From Thermoflavifilum aggregans (GTDB lineage Bacteria; Bacteroidota; Bacteroidia; Chitinophagales; Chitinophagaceae): a stretch of 64,000 nucleotides of DNA. Numbering within the stretch: the first letter of the stretch is position 1; every line of letters begins with the position of its first letter. Below are positions 54,232 through 63,017 of the stretch, piece by piece. A model generated the notes under the pieces. It was not told where the DNA came from, made no database searches, and saw only the letters and a program-made list of their open reading frames with translations. A program made the position numbers and the translations under genes. The stretch covers positions 1,488,001-1,552,000 of the forward strand of contig NZ_PGFG01000001.1 in the NCBI RefSeq assembly GCF_002797735.1, written 5' to 3'.

Positions 54232-57200
54232 TTATCGCAGCAAAGTGAGAACGCCTTTCTTAAACATGACCGGGCCATTGGGTGTTTCACGGTATTTCAC
54301 CCACCAGGCGTAGCCACCGGCATCGCAGGGGGCACCATGGAAAGTACCATCCCATCCCTGTGTCCAGTCGTGCGTCACAAACAAGAGTTGTCCCCAGCGA
54401 TTAAAGATGCGCAATTCGAAGTCGAATACCTGATGCAGCACTTTGGGCCTAAATACATCGTTGTGCCCGTCGTTATTGGGTGTGAAAGCATTCGGCATGA
54501 TGATATCACCCACGCAGTTGGCTGCAGGCTGCAGTGACACCGTGTCGGACGCAATGCCACAGATATTAAATGCCTGCACGCGGTATAAGCCGGGCTGGGT
54601 AGCGGTATAGCTGGGGCCGTAGGTGCCATCCTGCCAGCGGTAGCCTTCTGCATGCTCGCCAATGGCACGCAACAGCAGACGATCACCCGTGCAGATCAGG
54701 CTGTCATCGGCCAGGATTTGCACAGTCGGTAAGAATCCACGGGTAACTTTTACGGTATCTATTCGGGTGTAATTGCAAACAGCTCCGTTAATCAAAACTG
54801 TATACAAGCCGGGTGTGTCAACCGTGATGCGTGGTGTGGTTGCACCTGTACTCCACATATAGGCTATGGCATCGGGTGAAGACACGTCGAGCTGCAGGAT
54901 TTGGTTGGGGCAGAGGGTGGCTTCAGGATTCAGCCTGGGCAGGGTATTGGCCAGCAAATTCACCTGAATGGTATCAATTCGCAGGCAAAATCCGTTTGAG
55001 CTGATCACCCAGTATGTACCGGGCGATGACACACTCAGGCTGTCGGCATTTGAATGATCATTCCATTGATAGGAATAATTTTCACCGGTCAGTGAATATG
55101 CGTGAAGCGTGATTCGTTGACCTTCACACACATTTACCTGTTTTTCCAGGCTCAGCCGGGGTAGGGAGCGTACATGCAGATGCACGGAATCTACTGCACT
55201 GCAGCCAAAGGCATTGATGACCTGTACCCGATATACTCCTCCGTCTGATTCGGATGGCAGTGCCAAAGTAATTTGTCGGGTTGTATCACCCGTGCTCCAC
55301 CGGTAGTATACGCCGTCTCCACCTGCATCCAGGGTGATGGGTTGATTTTCGCAAGTACTGGTATCGTGGGTCAGCCGCAAGTTGGGCAGGGGTAAGGCTT
55401 TCAGATGAATAGTATCTGACTGGCTGCATCCCCAGGCATTGGTAACCCTAACCCAGTATTTCAAATCCATATTTACCTGTACCCGGATGCTGTCGCTATT
55501 TTCTCCGGTATTCCACAGCAGGCCAAAAGCCTGTTCGCTGGCGCCTGTAGACTGAGATGGACCTTCCCTATGAACCCATAAGTTTACCCATGATCCCTGG
55601 CATACGGCCGTATCACCCGCCACCTGAATGATGGGCAGCGGGTTGACAGTGAGCTGCATGGTATCGCTGGCGGCACAACCCGAGCTACTGGTGACTTTCA
55701 CCCAATAGGAGCCCGCGGTATCCACCGAGATAGATGGTGAAGATTGTCCGGTATTCCACAAGTAGGTAGCACCTGGATTGCCTGCATCCAGCGTGAGGCT
55801 TTCTCCCTGGCAGATGGCGGTATCTGGGCCGAGATTGACGATGGGCAGCGGGTTGACGGTGAGCTGCAGGGTATCGGTGGCGGCACAACCCGAGCTACTG
55901 GTGACCTTCACCCAATACTTACCTTCAGTTTTAATGGTTATTTGCTGGGTGGTGTCGCCTGTATTCCACAAGTAGGTGGCACCTGGGCCTGCGTTGAGCG
56001 TGAGGCTTTCTCCTTGGCAGATGGCGGTATCTGGACCAAGGTTAACAACAGGCAGCGGGTTGACGGTGAGCTGCAGGGTATCGGTGGCGGCGCAACCCAA
56101 GCTACTGGTGACTTTTACCCAATACTTACCCGCGGTATCGACCGAGATAGATGGTGAAATTTGTCCGGTATTCCACAAGTAGGTAGCACCTGGATTGCCT
56201 GCGTTCAGCGTGAGACTTTCTCCCTGGCAGATGGCGGTGTCCGGGCCGAGATTGATGATAGGCAGCGGGTTGACAGTGAGCTGCAGGGTATCGGTGGCGG
56301 CACAACCCGAGCTACTGGTGACCTTCACCCAATACTTACCTTCAGTTTTAATGGTTATTTGCTGGGTGGTGTCGCCTGTATTCCACACGTAGGTGGCACC
56401 TGGATTGCCTGCATCCAACACTAATCTTTCTCCCTGGCAGATGGCGGTGTCCGGGCCGAGATTGACGATGGGCAGCGGCTTGACGGTGAGCTGCAGGGTA
56501 TCGGTGGCGGCACAACCCGAGCTACTGGTGACTTTTACCCAATACTTACCTTCAGTTTTAATGGTTATTTGCTGGGTGGTGTCGCCAGTATTCCACAAGT
56601 ACGTTGACCCTGGATTGGCTGCGTTGAGCGTGAGGCTTTCTCCCTGGCAGATGGCGGTATCTGGGCCGAGATTGATGATGGGCAGTGGGTTGACAGTGAG
56701 CTGCAGGGTATCGGTGGCGGCACAACCCGAGCTACTGGTGACTTTCACCCAATAGGAGCCCGCGGTATCCACCGAGATAGATGGTGAAGTTTGTCCGGTA
56801 TTCCACAAGTAGGTGGCACCTGGATTGCCTGCATCCAACACTAATCTTTCTCCCTGGCAGATGGCGGTATCCGGGCCGAGGTTGACAACAGGCAATGGGT
56901 TGACAGTGAGCTGCAGGGTATCGGTGGCGGCACAACCCGAGCTACTGGTGACTTTCACCCAATAGGAGCCCGCGGTATCCACCGAGATAGATGGTGAAGT
57001 TTGTCCGGTATTCCACAAGTAGGTGGCACCTGGATTGCCTGCATCCAACACTAATCTTTCTCCCTGGCAGATGGCGGTATCCGGGCCGAGGTTGACAACA
57101 GGCAATGGGTTGACAGTGAGCTGCATGGTATCGGTGGCGGCACAACCCGAGCTACTGGTGACCTTCACCCAATAGGAGCCCGCGGTATCCACCGAGATAG

Positions 57201-60078
57201 ATGGTGAAGTTTGTCCGGTATTCCACAAGTAGGTAGCACCTGGATTGCCTGCATCCAGCGTGAGGCTTTCTCCCTGGCAGATGGCGGTATCCGGGCCGAG
57301 GTTGACGATGGGCAGCGGGTTGACAGTGAGCTGCAGGGTATCGCTGGCAGCGCAACCCGAGCTACTGGTGACTTTCACCCAATAGGAGTTTGCGGTTTCA
57401 ATGGTTATTTGCTGGGTGGTGTCGCCTGTATTCCACAAGTAGGTGGCACCTGGGCCTGCGTTGAGCGTGAGGCTTTCTCCCTGGCAGATGGCGGTATCCG
57501 GGCCGAGGTTGACGATGGGCAGTGGGTTGACGGTGAGCTGCAGGGTATCGCTGGCGGCACAACCCGAGCTACTGGTGACTTTCACCCAATAGGAGCCTGC
57601 GGTATCGACCGAGATAGATGGTGAAGATTGTCCGGTATTCCACAAGTAGGTAGCACCTGGGCCTGCGTTGAGCGTGAGGCTTTCTCCCTGGCAGATGGCG
57701 GTATCTGGCCCGAGGTCAACAACAGGCAGCGGCTTGACGGTGAGCTGCATGGTATCGCTGGCGGCGCAACCCAAGCTACTGGTGACTTTCACCCAATAGG
57801 AGCCTGCGGTATCGACCGAGATAGATGGTGAAGTTTGTCCGGTATTCCACAAGTAGGTGGCACCTGGGCCTGCGTTGAGCGTGAGACTTTCTCCCTGGCA
57901 GATGGCGGTATCCGGGCCGAGGTCAACAACAGGCAGCGGGTTGACGGTAAGCTGCATGGTATCGCTGGCGGCACAACCCGAGCTACTGGTGACCTTCACC
58001 CAATAGGAGCCTGCGGTATCCACCGAGATAGATGGCGAAGATTGTCCGGTATTCCACACGTAGGTAGCACCTGGGCCTGCGTTCAACGTGAGGCTTTCTC
58101 CCTGGCAGATGGCGGTATCCGGGCCGAGGTTGACGATGGGCAGTGGGTTGACGGTGAGCTGCAGGGTATCGCTGGCGGAACAACCCGAGCTGCTGGTGAC
58201 TTTCACCCAATAGGAGCCTGCGGTATCGACCGAGATAGATGGTGAAGTTTGTCCGGTATTCCACAAGTAGGTAGCACCTGGGCCTGCGTTGAGCGTGAGA
58301 CTTTCTCCCTGGCAGATGGCGGTATCCGGGCCGAGGTTGACGATAGGAGGAGCATGAAACGTTACCTGAATGGTGTCGTAGATTTCTCCGCAGGCCGGAC
58401 TGGTTACTTTGACCCAATATTTACCGGTAGAGCTTACCCGAATGGTGGATGTTGTATCATTGGTACTCCATAAATACGTAAGTCCGGGAGGTGGAGTGCC
58501 CCGAAACGGGGAGAGAGTAAGGGTATCGCCCTCGCATGCATCGGTATCAGCACCCAGATTCACGGATGAAGGATCAAAGACCGTAACCAGCGAAGAATCA
58601 GTGGCGGTGCAGGTTCCCGCTGCTCCGGATGATAGACTAGCAGTTACATAATATTTTGTTGTAACAGAGGGATGCACTGTAATGCTGGATGTGGTGTCGC
58701 CTGTACTCCATAAGTAGCTTGTATAGCCTTCTTGAGCACGGAGGGTAGCAGAGCTGCCTGCGCAAATTACCGTATCTCCCGGATGGACTACTGGTGAACG
58801 CAGCACCAGCAAATGCACCATGTTGGAAGGCGAGTTGCAGGTGGAATAGCTGATCTGTCCCTGTTCAGCAGCCAGGAAACGATAATATCGCGTATCCGAA
58901 GTATCGGTGGAGGGAATGATATACAGCGAATCGGTTGCGCCGGCAATATTGGTCCAGTTCACCCCATCCATGCTAACCTGCCATTGATAGGTGGGATGAG
59001 CAAAATATCCGGGCGTAACCGAAGCAAAAATGGTATCGGGATTGCCGGAGCAAATGGTATCGCTGCTTTGGTCGCTGTTGTGCAGATAGGCAATGAGGGT
59101 GGGGCCGCAATAGGTAAATTCGATATCATCAATGGCAAGATCATTCCCGCAACCCCCGGGAGCATTATTTCGTATGACCAGTTTTACGCTATCCAAGCCT
59201 ATCGGAGTTCGGAATCCGAAACCATATCGCTGCCAAGTGGGACTATCCACAATCTGTCCGGAACCGTTGGTGGTCAGCTTCATGGAGACGTCATTGGTAT
59301 TTACACTATCTATGACTTTATTCGTTAACGGGTTCACGACCAAAAAGGTAACATTGGGAAAGATGGTTCCCCCCGAGCAAATGCTTTGTAGCACTTGTTT
59401 ACCATCCACATTTAAAAGCCATGCACTAAATGAATATTGAGCTCCTTGGCATAGGCCTTTAATCGTTCGCGTGTAAAATATTCCAGGTGTCCAAGCGGCA
59501 TTTACCAGAAGCATCCCGCCATTTGGATTTCCGGTATGATCTTTCATATTTACCCATTCACATCTTCCATTAATAGTGTTTGCGGTAATGACATAAGAGT
59601 TATCATACAACCAAAAGCTATCGTTTTGAGGTGGTTGAGGGTTACACGGAACGGGTGGAAATGTATCGTATTGGTAGCTTATAAATGCCGGCGGATTCAA
59701 TCGACGTCTGGCAGTATCATTGGGCAAAGTGCCGAAATCTTCAAACAAAAACGGTGAGGATGCCTTGGTACCCGCACAATCGGTGGAAGGACAATACACG
59801 ACATGGACCTTATATTGGTAGGTACTACCATTGTACGTTGCGCGTACAGTGATGTAACCTGTGTCAGTAAACTGAACCGTTACACTCCGGGTCGTTTTAT
59901 TGCTAGTTAGGAAAATAGAATTTGGAATATTCCACTGTACATTGGTGGAATTGCCGGCCTTTGACAGATCGAAAGTAGCAAAGGTGTTTTGGCAAACCGT
60001 TTTAGGGCCAACGATTTGTGCGTCAGCTATCTGCCACCAGGCACTGATAATCATGATGAAGATCAATGGCTTCCTCAT
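54232..60078 (-). CDS. Giant secreted repeat protein with gliding-motility type C-terminal (type B) T9SS sorting domain
   Basis: 1948 residues. A signal peptide ends near residue 20 (ADAQ). About 21-335 is a non-repeated N-terminal region containing PKD/Ig-like strands and, around 95-320, a carbohydrate-binding-like jelly roll (GGMLLVNAAWTPGIFYTRTIKGLCQG). Thirteen near-identical 69/70-residue Ig-like repeats cover 579-1482, preceded and followed by diverged copies. The last 95 residues (MPNAFTPNNDGHNDVF, FNRWGQLLF) are the CHU_C-type sorting domain used by the type IX secretion system. A long cell-surface adhesin or structural filament is the most likely role. Transcribed alone on the minus strand. 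Confidence 0.9.
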   Translation of the reverse strand: MRKPLIFIMIISAWWQIADAQIVGPKTVCQNTFATFDLSKAGNSTNVQWNIPNSIFLTSNKTTRSVTVQFTDTGYITVRATYNGSTYQYKVHVVYCPSTDCAGTKASSPFLFEDFGTLPNDTARRRLNPPAFISYQYDTFPPVPCNPQPPQNDSFWLYDNSYVITANTINGRCEWVNMKDHTGNPNGGMLLVNAAWTPGIFYTRTIKGLCQGAQYSFSAWLLNVDGKQVLQSICSGGTIFPNVTFLVVNPLTNKVIDSVNTNDVSMKLTTNGSGQIVDSPTWQRYGFGFRTPIGLDSVKLVIRNNAPGGCGNDLAIDDIEFTYCGPTLIAYLHNSDQSSDTICSGNPDTIFASVTPGYFAHPTYQWQVSMDGVNWTNIAGATDSLYIIPSTDTSDTRYYRFLAAEQGQISYSTCNSPSNMVHLLVLRSPVVHPGDTVICAGSSATLRAQEGYTSYLWSTGDTTSSITVHPSVTTKYYVTASLSSGAAGTCTATDSSLVTVFDPSSVNLGADTDACEGDTLTLSPFRGTPPPGLTYLWSTNDTTSTIRVSSTGKYWVKVTSPACGEIYDTIQVTFHAPPIVNLGPDTAICQGESLTLNAGPGATYLWNTGQTSPSISVDTAGSYWVKVTSSSGCSASDTLQLTVNPLPIVNLGPDTAICQGESLTLNAGPGATYVWNTGQSSPSISVDTAGSYWVKVTSSSGCAASDTMQLTVNPLPVVDLGPDTAICQGESLTLNAGPGATYLWNTGQTSPSISVDTAGSYWVKVTSSLGCAASDTMQLTVKPLPVVDLGPDTAICQGESLTLNAGPGATYLWNTGQSSPSISVDTAGSYWVKVTSSSGCAASDTLQLTVNPLPIVNLGPDTAICQGESLTLNAGPGATYLWNTGDTTQQITIETANSYWVKVTSSSGCAASDTLQLTVNPLPIVNLGPDTAICQGESLTLDAGNPGATYLWNTGQTSPSISVDTAGSYWVKVTSSSGCAATDTMQLTVNPLPVVNLGPDTAICQGERLVLDAGNPGATYLWNTGQTSPSISVDTAGSYWVKVTSSSGCAATDTLQLTVNPLPVVNLGPDTAICQGERLVLDAGNPGATYLWNTGQTSPSISVDTAGSYWVKVTSSSGCAATDTLQLTVNPLPIINLGPDTAICQGESLTLNAANPGSTYLWNTGDTTQQITIKTEGKYWVKVTSSSGCAATDTLQLTVKPLPIVNLGPDTAICQGERLVLDAGNPGATYVWNTGDTTQQITIKTEGKYWVKVTSSSGCAATDTLQLTVNPLPIINLGPDTAICQGESLTLNAGNPGATYLWNTGQISPSISVDTAGKYWVKVTSSLGCAATDTLQLTVNPLPVVNLGPDTAICQGESLTLNAGPGATYLWNTGDTTQQITIKTEGKYWVKVTSSSGCAATDTLQLTVNPLPIVNLGPDTAICQGESLTLDAGNPGATYLWNTGQSSPSISVDTAGSYWVKVTSSSGCAASDTMQLTVNPLPIIQVAGDTAVCQGSWVNLWVHREGPSQSTGASEQAFGLLWNTGENSDSIRVQVNMDLKYWVRVTNAWGCSQSDTIHLKALPLPNLRLTHDTSTCENQPITLDAGGDGVYYRWSTGDTTRQITLALPSESDGGVYRVQVINAFGCSAVDSVHLHVRSLPRLSLEKQVNVCEGQRITLHAYSLTGENYSYQWNDHSNADSLSVSSPGTYWVISSNGFCLRIDTIQVNLLANTLPRLNPEATLCPNQILQLDVSSPDAIAYMWSTGATTPRITVDTPGLYTVLINGAVCNYTRIDTVKVTRGFLPTVQILADDSLICTGDRLLLRAIGEHAEGYRWQDGTYGPSYTATQPGLYRVQAFNICGIASDTVSLQPAANCVGDIIMPNAFTPNNDGHNDVFRPKVLHQVFDFELRIFNRWGQLLFVTHDWTQGWDGTFHGAPCDAGGYAWWVKYRETPNGPVMFKKGVLTLLR
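55633..58344 (-). repeat. Tandem array of 13 coding repeats of 207/210 bases
   Basis: Encodes 904 residues. Six units are 69 residues (1-5 and 12) and seven are 70 (6-11 and 13), the difference being one asparagine in AGNPG versus AGPG. Each unit begins with [IV][IV]xLGPDTAICQGE and ends with QLTV[NK]PLP. Units 7 and 8 (about 56680-57099) are identical in protein and over at least 200 bases of DNA. Confidence 0.97.
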
Positions 60079-60191: not shown

Positions 60192-61502
60192 TTATGTTTT
60201 TAAAATACTTGTGGCAATTTCATTTCCGCTGGCAAGGGCCGATTCTACCGTGCCCCATGGAGGATGGGCATAATAAGCTTCCCCGGCGAAGTATAACCGA
60301 TGAGGGAAAAAGGCCTGAAGTTGTTTGATAAGGGTTTGATGTCCGGGTACCGGATAACTGTAACTTCCGCAGGCAAATGGGTCTAAATACCAATCAAATA
60401 TAAAATATTTTAACAATTCCTTTTGTAAAATTTTGGCGGGTAAACCGGATATCTGTACAAGTGATTGAATAACAGCATCTTTTTGAATAACCGGCCATGT
60501 ATTACCAGATGGAAGAGGTCCTCCTTTCCAGCCTGTGAGTACGGGCCAATCATTTGGATAGGCTGTCCACCAGGTAGGCACGGGCGCCTGGCTGATCAGG
60601 AAGCCCATATCCGGAGCAAAGCGTGATGCCCACCAGGGATGTTTCCACAGGGTAATGATTTTGGTGGCCGTTCCGTAGCCCAATTGCTGCATAACCTGGA
60701 TGATGCGGTCTTCTCCGGGTTCTATGGAAATGCCTTTATGACCGTATTTTTGGAAAGTACCCGGCGGCAAGGTGATGACCACCCGATCTGCCATATACGT
60801 TAGGATCTTTTGCCGGAAATGAGCCTTCACCTGGACGAAGGCAGGGGATGATAAGGAAACCTGCCTGACCGGATGGGCATAAAGCAATTTTCCGCCCGCC
60901 TGTTGAAATTGGGCTACCATGCCATAAATCATGGCCCCATAGCCTGAAGCCTGCAGATGCGGTGCCCGGCCTATCCGATAATTGGGCCCCTCTTCTTGTT
61001 CCCATTCGTCGCGCAGGGCAAGCATGCTAACCCGTTCCGGGTCGGCTGCATCATAACCCATGGCAAAGCGTAACAGCTCCTGTCGGAAATCCGCGTAGGA
61101 TTCTCCGGGAAAATAGGTGTTCAGAAAAGCATGAAGCGTGGTATCGTGCCTGAGGCCGGCGAGGATTTCATGAAATTTCTTCCATGCCGCTTCCCGAGAA
61201 GGAGAGGGAGAAGATGCATCCGGAAGCAATCGGATGGTTTTTCCTGTTACTGCAGAGACAGATAAGTGTAATTTCTCTACCCATCTGAAGGTATGAGGCA
61301 GGCGCCCATGGATAAATTCAGCACCGGCCTCCAGGTTATATCCAGTTTGCTTGTCGGTGAATGTATGGATACGGCCACCCGCGCGGTTTCGGGCTTCGAG
61401 TATCAATACTTTTTGTCCGGCTTCCGCAAGCCTTACACCACATTGCAGGCCCGATGCTCCGACACCTACAATGAGTGTATCCCATTTGGCAGATATTCCC
61501 AT
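60192..61502 (-). CDS. Flavin-containing amine oxidoreductase
   Basis: 436 residues from the ATG at 61502. The FAD-binding VGVGASGLQCGVRLAEAGQKVLILEARNRAGGRIHT-type N-terminal region comprises the GxGxxG motif, the acidic strand end (LEAR) and GGR. A central ITLPPGTF follows and the C-terminal FAD region LYFAGEAYYAHPPWGTVESAL closes the fold, as in monoamine oxidase-like enzymes. It oxidises an amine or another substrate with oxygen or another acceptor; the substrate is unknown. The upstream GTG (61532) would lie upstream of the promoter box. Confidence 0.88.
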   Translation of the reverse strand: MGISAKWDTLIVGVGASGLQCGVRLAEAGQKVLILEARNRAGGRIHTFTDKQTGYNLEAGAEFIHGRLPHTFRWVEKLHLSVSAVTGKTIRLLPDASSPSPSREAAWKKFHEILAGLRHDTTLHAFLNTYFPGESYADFRQELLRFAMGYDAADPERVSMLALRDEWEQEEGPNYRIGRAPHLQASGYGAMIYGMVAQFQQAGGKLLYAHPVRQVSLSSPAFVQVKAHFRQKILTYMADRVVITLPPGTFQKYGHKGISIEPGEDRIIQVMQQLGYGTATKIITLWKHPWWASRFAPDMGFLISQAPVPTWWTAYPNDWPVLTGWKGGPLPSGNTWPVIQKDAVIQSLVQISGLPAKILQKELLKYFIFDWYLDPFACGSYSYPVPGHQTLIKQLQAFFPHRLYFAGEAYYAHPPWGTVESALASGNEIATSILKT

Positions 61503-61507
61503 CCGCC

Positions 61508-61537
61508 CAAAATTACAATAGCAGAGCTTCACTCCAG
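61508..61537 (-). promoter_or_regulatory. Promoter of the amine oxidoreductase gene
   Basis: On the minus strand CTG (61535-61537), 19 bases, then TAATTTTG (61508-61515), a full match to TAnnTTTG. The ATG at 61502 follows five bases later, implying a leaderless transcript. Confidence 0.55.
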
Positions 61538-61762
61538 CCAGATTCGTCCCTTCAGCCGGATATCTGCAGAGGATGCAGCTATCCAGACATCAAACCAGCC
61601 GGGTTCGAGCTGATTTATAAAGACTTCATTTTTGTTATCAAACCCATTGAAATATTTTACTGTAAAAAATCAATCCATCCCTCATGATAGATTGTCTGGG
61701 TGGAAAGAGTTGATGCCCTGGCTGTCAGTACAATACCGAGCAGAAATACTTTCCTAACACAT
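61529..61762 (-). pseudogene. Remnant of a GH3 beta-glucosidase-type gene (both ends, middle deleted)
   Basis: On the minus strand, from about 61758 to 61657, one frame reads a signal peptide-like stretch (VRKVFLLGIVLTARAST) then TIYHEGWIDF, like the N-terminus of Bacteroidota GH3 proteins. A second frame, from about 61665 to 61529, reads TVKYFNGFDNKNEVFINQ then EPGWFDVWIAASSADIRLKG and a stop. It matches the fibronectin-type C-terminal end of GH3 enzymes. The catalytic barrel between them is absent. The start is also damaged (an ATG TGT TAG at 61762). It lies between GH88 and the amine oxidase. Confidence 0.6.
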
Positions 61763-61771
61763 GGTTTTGGG

Positions 61772-62971
61772 TTAAAAGAAAAAATCGGGTCTCTCTGGAT
61801 GCGTATATCTCCACAATGCCTGCAGCAGATAATAATCTGCATAGATCAGCGGCACATCCATTTCCCGGTGATGATGGGCATCGCCGGTTGCATGTTTCAG
61901 TAAAAAATATGTGTGAGTGTTGTTTATATTCAGATAGGCTGGCGAACACAAGCTTTGCAGCAGGTTCATTGCCCATTGCTGATAATAGGCAGCTTTTTTA
62001 GCAGGTACATAACGTTTCAATTCCAGCAGGGCCGAAGCTGCAATAGCGGCTGCAGAAGCATCCTTTAGCTGTTTCAGGCTATCGGGTGCATTGAAATCCC
62101 ATGGTGGAATATGATCAGGAATCACAGCGATGTGACGGATAAAATAATCGGCTGCTTTTTGTGCATAAAACAGGTAACGTTTGTTTTGGGTATAACGGTA
62201 AGCCACCGTGAGTCCATAAATGGCCCAGGCCTGCCCGCGTGACCAGCAGCTGCTATCGGCATATCCCTGCCAGGTTTTGCGCGCCAGCAGGGAGCCGGAA
62301 GCCGGGTCGTAATCCAGCACGTGAAAGGTACTGAAATCTTTCCGGAAACGGTATCGCAAATCGTGGTTGATGTGCGATACCGCTATCCGGTAAAAACTGC
62401 TGTCGCCGGTGAGGGCTGTGGCACGGAAAAGCAGCTCCAGATTCATCAGGTTGTCCACGATCACCGGATAATGCCAGGGACCTCCATCCCAGGATTTGAT
62501 TTCACCCACCTGCGGATGAAAACGTTGGCTAAGCGAATGCGCTGCACGAATCAGCACTTCACGAAATTCAGCCTGATGGGTAGTCTGATAGGCTTTTTCA
62601 AACGGAATGCCCACCATAAAACCCAGATCGTGGGTAGTGGTAAGGGTATCGTCGGCCGATAGGGGAAGGGTATAGGCAAGGGCTTGCTGTTGCCAGTAAG
62701 GATTATGTGTGAATGCATGCAAATACCACAATTTACCCGGAAAAAAACCAGCTGTCCAGCCGTGGATATTCACCTCAACGGGCTGACCGCTTGCCGTCAG
62801 GCTGTGCAGGAACCGCAAGCTATCCCGATGCACAGCGAAATATGCCTTTGTTTGTTGCTCAGCCAGCTGCACCACCCGATTGACGGGCAAGGTATCGGAT
62901 GCGGAGAGCTGATTGATAAATCCGGCATGTGCGTGGCTGAAGATCCAGCAGAAAAGGATGAGCAACCGCAT
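61772..62971 (-). CDS. GH88 unsaturated glucuronyl hydrolase
   Basis: Removes the unsaturated uronic acid left by polysaccharide lyases from oligosaccharides. The 399-residue product has a signal peptide (residues 1-17), then an (alpha/alpha)6 barrel with NIHGWTAGFFPGKLWYL, TTHDLGFM (catalytic aspartate region), IVDNLMNLELLF with the second aspartate and SSCWSRGQAWAIYGL. The ATG at 62971 is chosen over the TTG at 62989, which overlaps the -7 box. It is divergent from a LacI-type regulator that probably controls it. Confidence 0.92.
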   Translation of the reverse strand: MRLLILFCWIFSHAHAGFINQLSASDTLPVNRVVQLAEQQTKAYFAVHRDSLRFLHSLTASGQPVEVNIHGWTAGFFPGKLWYLHAFTHNPYWQQQALAYTLPLSADDTLTTTHDLGFMVGIPFEKAYQTTHQAEFREVLIRAAHSLSQRFHPQVGEIKSWDGGPWHYPVIVDNLMNLELLFRATALTGDSSFYRIAVSHINHDLRYRFRKDFSTFHVLDYDPASGSLLARKTWQGYADSSCWSRGQAWAIYGLTVAYRYTQNKRYLFYAQKAADYFIRHIAVIPDHIPPWDFNAPDSLKQLKDASAAAIAASALLELKRYVPAKKAAYYQQWAMNLLQSLCSPAYLNINNTHTYFLLKHATGDAHHHREMDVPLIYADYYLLQALWRYTHPERPDFFF

Positions 62972-62986
62972 GTTTTTCAGTTTGGA

Positions 62987-63017
62987 CAAAGATGCCCGAA
63001 ATGGATAAAAACTGCAA
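62987..63017 (-). promoter_or_regulatory. Possible GH88 promoter (TTG-N20-CATCTTTG)
   Basis: On the minus strand TTG at 63015-63017, 20 bases, then CATCTTTG at 62987-62994, one mismatch from TAnnTTTG, ending 15 bases before the ATG. Confidence 0.4.

What the first reader, a model, noticed from the sequence alone, without database searches (positions are those of the whole stretch)
61529..61762. GH3 gene reduced to its first and last few dozen codons
A signal peptide and GH3-like start (TIYHEGWIDF) are followed within about ten bases, in another frame, by a GH3-like C-terminal end (EPGWFDVWIAASSADIRL, stop). The parts are in the right order, so a single large internal deletion of some 2 kb is the simplest explanation. 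It sits beside GH88 and suggests that this uronic-acid locus once had a beta-glucosidase-type partner.
Basis: partly seen in the sequence, partly recalled or inferred. Interest (0 to 1): 0.5.

Follow-up and report, generated by a model that had tools for sequence, protein, structure and literature searches.

The report
Decayed GH3 sugar-enzyme gene remnant
In this bacterium a gene for a family 3 sugar-cutting enzyme has shrunk to its two ends while three of four sister genomes still carry it whole; it is an ordinary example of a bacterium losing a gene.

Summary
On the minus strand between a GH88 gene and a flavin amine oxidase gene (AO) lie pieces of the start (up to codon 35) and the last 26 codons of a GH3 gene, in order and in different frames. 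Three of four congeners (G001, G002, G004) have a complete 783-791 aa GH3 at this place; the fourth, G003, has neither gene nor trace. G000 has no other close copy (best paralogue 39%). The C piece matches intact genes at E 1e-17, the N piece at best 6e-8 (45.5 bits; 0 of 1000 shuffles reach that). By G004 numbering 728 codons (2184 nt) are gone and 56 nt of very AT-rich DNA of unknown origin sit at the join, so this is a deletion with filler, not a clean cut; no usual start codon remains in frame after GH88. It is a pseudogene; the lost enzyme was probably an exo-glycosidase acting after GH88 (inference). Side result: in G004 the intact GH3 looks exchanged with the G001 lineage and is followed by a 7.5-kb low-GC island with restriction-type genes and a second copy of the GH3 tail. 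Ordinary gene loss, low interest.

The parts
61666..61762 (-). 5' remnant of the GH3 gene: hydrophobic leader-like stretch plus TIYHEGWIDF (the latter matches codons ~24-35 of G004 GH3); no ATG, GTG or TTG in frame after the GH88 stop
   Evidence: blastn match 61700-61667 to intact GH3 of G004, G001, G002
61610..61665 (-). 56-nt filler at the deletion join, 23% G+C, source not found (its first ~15 nt may be diverged GH3 codons)
61529..61609 (-). 3' remnant of the GH3 gene, 26 codons LEPGWFDVWIAASSADIRLKGRIWLE and stop; overlaps the GTG (61532-61530) at which the AO frame can open
61772..62989 (-). GH88-type unsaturated glucuronyl hydrolase gene, open frame of 405 codons, upstream neighbour
   Evidence: Pfam PF07470, 20 bits, below its cut-off 26.6; 3wiw, E 1.7e-76
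60192..61532 (-). flavin amine oxidase gene, downstream neighbour
   Evidence: PF01593
63070..64000 (+). divergent regulator gene, LacI-type (name from recall; runs off the window)
   Evidence: present in all 5 genus genomes

Best explanation
It is the in-place pseudogene of a GH3 exo-glycosidase that used to stand between GH88 and the amine oxidase. An internal deletion removed codons 36 to 763 (about 2.18 kb, by G004 numbering) and left 56 nt of unrelated-looking AT-rich DNA at the join, which shifts the frame; the start codon is gone too. It makes no enzyme now. Shown: both ends, their order, the intact gene at this place in three congeners, no other close copy in the genome. Inferred: that one main deletion did it, that the enzyme was secreted, and that it trimmed sugars after GH88 had removed an unsaturated uronic acid.
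For: Ends match intact GH3 orthologues (C piece 77.9 bits, N piece 45.5 bits; best of 1000 shuffles 41.0). Order GH88-GH3-AO in G001 and G002, GH88-GH3-insert-AO in G004. G000 is one contig, 100% complete, and its best match to this GH3 is 39% identical. The intact G004 protein has PF00933, PF01915 and PF14310. A 21-base stretch across the remnant's end and stop is identical in the GH3-tail copy beside AO of G004, so this GH3 end is native to the G000/G004 lineage. GH88 and GH3 act in one series in a Bacteroides intestinalis xanthan-oligosaccharide locus (PMC10881899, passages).
Against: G003 has GH88 and AO side by side with no GH3 trace (18.4 bits), so the gene may have come late to part of the genus. 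AO itself is poorly conserved (G000 to G002 46%, to G003 50% aa), so that flank is a weaker anchor than GH88. The N piece taken against G004 or G001 alone (35.6 and 32.8 bits) is within reach of a few shuffles. The filler has no known source. Outside the genus close GH88-GH3 linkage is uncommon: 3 of 78 other loci (36 of the 80 loci have cut flanks).
Confidence: 0.94

Rival explanations
1. Assembly or sequencing artefact: the GH3 gene is whole in the cell and the assembler dropped it.
For: No reads could be examined and only one assembly of this genome was at hand.
Against: One contig at 100% completeness; the join holds 56 nt that match GH3 of no congener, and the start codon is also missing, which a dropped stretch alone would not give.
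Confidence: 0.03
2. The deletion is the scar of an island that once sat in or beside the GH3 tail, as in G004, and left together with most of the gene; the AT-rich filler is what remains of it.
For: In G004 an insert of about 7.5 kb, 36% G+C, lies between the intact GH3 and AO, flanked by two copies of the GH3 tail (29 nt identical). The filler is 23% G+C; 1% of 9135 sampled 56-nt windows are as low.
Against: The filler shows no real match to the G004 locus (best within the filler 26 nt at 77%, E 2.2) nor to the listed phage and plasmid rows (best listed E 2 and 0.5; 5 of 56 and 5 of 19 records shown).
Confidence: 0.12
3. The two pieces are chance resemblances in an ordinary intergenic region.
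For: Each piece is short, Pfam does not call either, and a few shuffles reach the N-piece scores against G001 and G004.
Against: C piece E 1e-17 and N piece E 6e-8 to the gene that fills this interval in three congeners, at the correct ends and in the correct order.
Confidence: 0.005

Closest known systems
Intact GH3 of Thermoflavifilum thermophilum DSM 14807 (G004) and of congeners G001 and G002
   Same: same place after GH88; the pieces are 78-91% identical at nucleotide level to its first and last codons
   Different: 783-791 codons and intact; in G004 followed by an insert of about 7.5 kb
Bacterial pseudogenes in general (PMC522871 and PMC2916853; seen only as search listing with the start of the abstract)
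   Same: broken gene left in place in a dense genome
   Different: here only the two ends survive, with a filler of unknown source at the join
GH88 and GH3 of the Bacteroides intestinalis xanthan-oligosaccharide locus (PMC10881899, passages)
   Same: GH88 and GH3 in one locus, acting one after the other
   Different: that locus also has GH5, GH92, a lyase-esterase and TonB-dependent transporters; here only the regulator, GH88 and GH3 were seen together, and the substrate is unknown

Membership tests
Pseudogene of GH3 | homology of the surviving parts to a GH3 gene | tested here: met
   C piece 77.9 bits, N piece 45.5 bits to G002 (35.6 and 32.8 to G004 and G001); best of 1000 shuffles 41.0
Pseudogene of GH3 | intact orthologue at the same place in relatives | tested here: met
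   3 of 4 congeners; G003 lacks it
Pseudogene of GH3 | no reading frame for the enzyme and no intact copy elsewhere | tested here: met
   frame change, stop and no in-frame start; best other GH3 in G000 39% identical
Functional GH3 enzyme | GH3 N- and C-terminal catalytic domains | tested here: not met
   these domains, 121-394 and 434-671 of the G004 protein, lie wholly in the missing codons 36-763
GH88 (neighbour) | similarity to a solved GH88 / unsaturated glucuronyl hydrolase | tested here: met
   3wiw E 1.7e-76; but Pfam GH88 scores 20 bits, below its cut-off 26.6
GH88 (neighbour) | hydrolysis of unsaturated glucuronyl oligosaccharides | not testable with these tools
   needs an enzyme assay

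The most novel reading that the evidence does not exclude
The GH3 tail beside the amine oxidase is a recurrent exchange spot in Thermoflavifilum: islands with restriction-type genes and foreign GH3 copies enter there by recombination in the GH3 tail, and the departure of one destroyed the G000 gene, the AT-rich filler being its scar.
Probability: 0.12. Interest if true: 0.35.

Novelty: new member of a known kind. Interest (0 to 1): 0.15.

Why it matters
Little beyond annotation: it explains the short interval between GH88 and the amine oxidase, shows that this lineage lost a sugar-cutting gene that three sister genomes keep, and warns that GH88 here should not be read as part of a complete pathway. 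The apparent exchange of GH3 in T. thermophilum next to a restriction-type island is a small case of how such loci turn over.

Tried and rejected
Pfam on the two typed pieces gave 0 families, so comparison with orthologues was used. A DNA search of 61400-62100 in plasmids gave no match. The filler with 12 flanking nt was searched in the five genus genomes (besides itself the best rows are G001 E 0.014 and 0.048 and G004 E 0.049, in G000 E 0.59), five of these places were looked at (short matches with no common source, judged chance), and in phages (56 records at E up to 10, 5 listed, best listed E 2) and plasmids (19 records, 5 listed, best listed E 0.5). A six-term paper search on glycoside hydrolase remnants in Bacteroidetes found 0 papers holding all terms; 14 papers name Thermoflavifilum (listing only, none opened). 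Of the 16 papers one was opened, as passages. Wide GH88-GH3 linkage was tested and is weak: a GH88 match at E up to 1e-15 in 5 of 80 loci, 2 of them Thermoflavifilum. In one search, 38 genomes outside the genus have a GH3 at E up to 1e-220; by eye 7 of these (G247, G190, G008, G006, G105, G227, G032) have a GH88 homologue about 4-26 kb away on the same contig, a lower bound since one search does not list all matches. I made no family tree and predicted no structure.

Full report
What is there. On the minus strand the order is GH88 (62989-61772), a 239-nt interval, then a flavin amine oxidase, AO (61532-60192), with a divergent LacI-type regulator upstream of GH88 (the name LacI is from recall). 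The interval reads, in one frame, a hydrophobic leader and TIYHEGWIDF (61695-61666) and after two more codons a stop (61659-61657), and in another frame KYFNGFDNKNEVFINQ followed by LEPGWFDVWIAASSADIRLKGRIWLE and a stop at 61531-61529.

Relatives. The genome (G000) is one contig of 2.84 Mb; the held genus has four other genomes. G004 matches the contig length and place of Thermoflavifilum thermophilum DSM 14807, with a GH3 100% identical, and G002 matches the contig length of the Thermoflavifilum MAG HOG52, so the window belongs to genus Thermoflavifilum, family Chitinophagaceae; the species was not determined. GH88 and an AO-type gene occur in the same order in all five, though AO is poorly conserved (G000 to G004 82%, G001 62%, G003 50%, G002 46% aa). 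G001, G002 and G004 have a complete GH3 of 791, 783 and 789 aa right after GH88. G003, the most divergent by regulator and GH88, has only 142 nt between GH88 and AO. A protein search with the G004 GH3 finds no close copy elsewhere in G000 or G003; the best are 39% identical. The G004 protein carries PF00933, PF01915 and PF14310; its nearest solved relatives are called beta-xylosidase (7zb3, E 4e-147) and xylosidase (8c7f), then several beta-glucosidases; its eight NCBIfam matches are all below cut-off.

Remnant test. With the three intact genes as database the G000 interval gives a C-terminal match of 75 nt at 83% (G004, 77.9 bits) and an N-terminal match of 32 nt at 91% (G002, 45.5 bits; G004 35.6, G001 32.8), at the right ends and in order. 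Of 1000 dinucleotide-preserving shuffles 3 reach 32.8 bits and the best 41.0; the G003 interval reaches 18.4. In G004 numbering codon 35 is the last matched on one side and codon 764 the first on the other, so 728 codons (2184 nt) are replaced by 56 nt (61665-61610); 56 is not a multiple of three, hence the frame change. An alignment hints that up to ~15 nt of the filler could be diverged codons with a small gap; this is weak. The filler has 23% G+C against 46% for the window, and 1% of 9135 sampled 56-nt windows are as low. Its source was not found. No ATG, GTG or TTG stands in the N-piece frame between the GH88 stop and the N-frame stop; an upstream in-frame ATG (61842) lies inside GH88.

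What it did. GH88 here is closest among solved structures to 3wiw, labelled family 88 (E 1.7e-76), though Pfam's GH88 model scores it below cut-off (20 against 26.6 bits). In a reviewed Bacteroides intestinalis locus GH88, GH92 and GH3 act one after another on xanthan oligosaccharides (PMC10881899, passages). By analogy the lost GH3 would have trimmed sugars exposed by GH88; this is inference and the substrate is open. The tight linkage was seen in this genus; elsewhere it is uncommon: 3 of 78 non-Thermoflavifilum loci have a GH88 match within the held flanks (36 of the 80 loci have cut flanks), and 7 of 38 family genomes have the two within about 4-26 kb, by eye (a lower bound).

Side result in G004. 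In 150-column windows G004-G001 identity is 53-83% in GH88 and 80-93% from the GH88/GH3 border through GH3, while G004-G002 is 66-86% in GH88 and 71-86% in GH3. Over whole genes G004-G001 identity is 86.4% for GH3, 78.3% for the regulator and 70.0% for GH88, against G004-G002 77.5, 79.9 and 71.8; fourfold sites agree at 220 of 369 (GH3), 44 of 114 (regulator) and 62 of 126 (GH88), the last difference being modest. From the stop of G004 GH3 the next bases equal those of G001 for 11 nt; then come a fragment like the neighbouring large repeat-protein gene (82% to G001), a stretch with an N6 methylase (MAD2-like, below cut-off), a DUF5655 gene, a Methylase_S gene (MAD5-like, below cut-off) and an SH3-domain gene, and a second copy of the GH3 tail, identical to the first for 29 nt and then like G000 into AO. 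The 7550 bases taken as the insert have 36% G+C, against 53% in GH3. G004 therefore probably took GH3 from the G001 lineage, its native GH3 surviving only as that tail; this is inference. Whether G004's ancestor already had the G000 deletion cannot be told, since no filler was seen in G004.

Verdict. It is ordinary gene decay; the filler and the exchange in G004 are its only unusual points.

Noticed in passing
L047:5872-13433 (T. thermophilum, G004): A low-GC insert of about 7.5 kb between GH3 and the amine oxidase with an N6 methylase (MAD2-like, below cut-off), DUF5655, a Methylase_S gene (MAD5-like, below cut-off) and an SH3-domain gene, flanked by two copies of the GH3 tail: a candidate restriction or defence island.
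   Followed up: partly
L047:3410-5868: GH3 of T. thermophilum looks exchanged with the G001 lineage: identity to G001 is 53-83% in GH88 windows and 80-93% in GH3 windows.
   Followed up: partly
window 54232-60078, minus strand: A 1948-aa repeat protein with many near-identical units of about 70 residues; a fragment of such a gene lies after GH3 in G004 (L047:5872-6054).
   Followed up: no
L051, L052: The GH88 relatives at 53% identity in G011 and G246 sit by other genes (in each locus one frame reads like a sulfatase, by eye), not by GH3 in the stretch held.
   Followed up: no
G163:C6:15585-16703 and G007:C20:43782-44900: GH88 homologues in open frames of about 1120 aa, suggesting a fusion of GH88 with another large domain.
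   Followed up: no
window 60192-61532 and its counterparts: The amine oxidase downstream differs strongly between congeners (46-82% aa to G000) while the regulator is 76-95%, as if that position had been replaced more than once.
   Followed up: no
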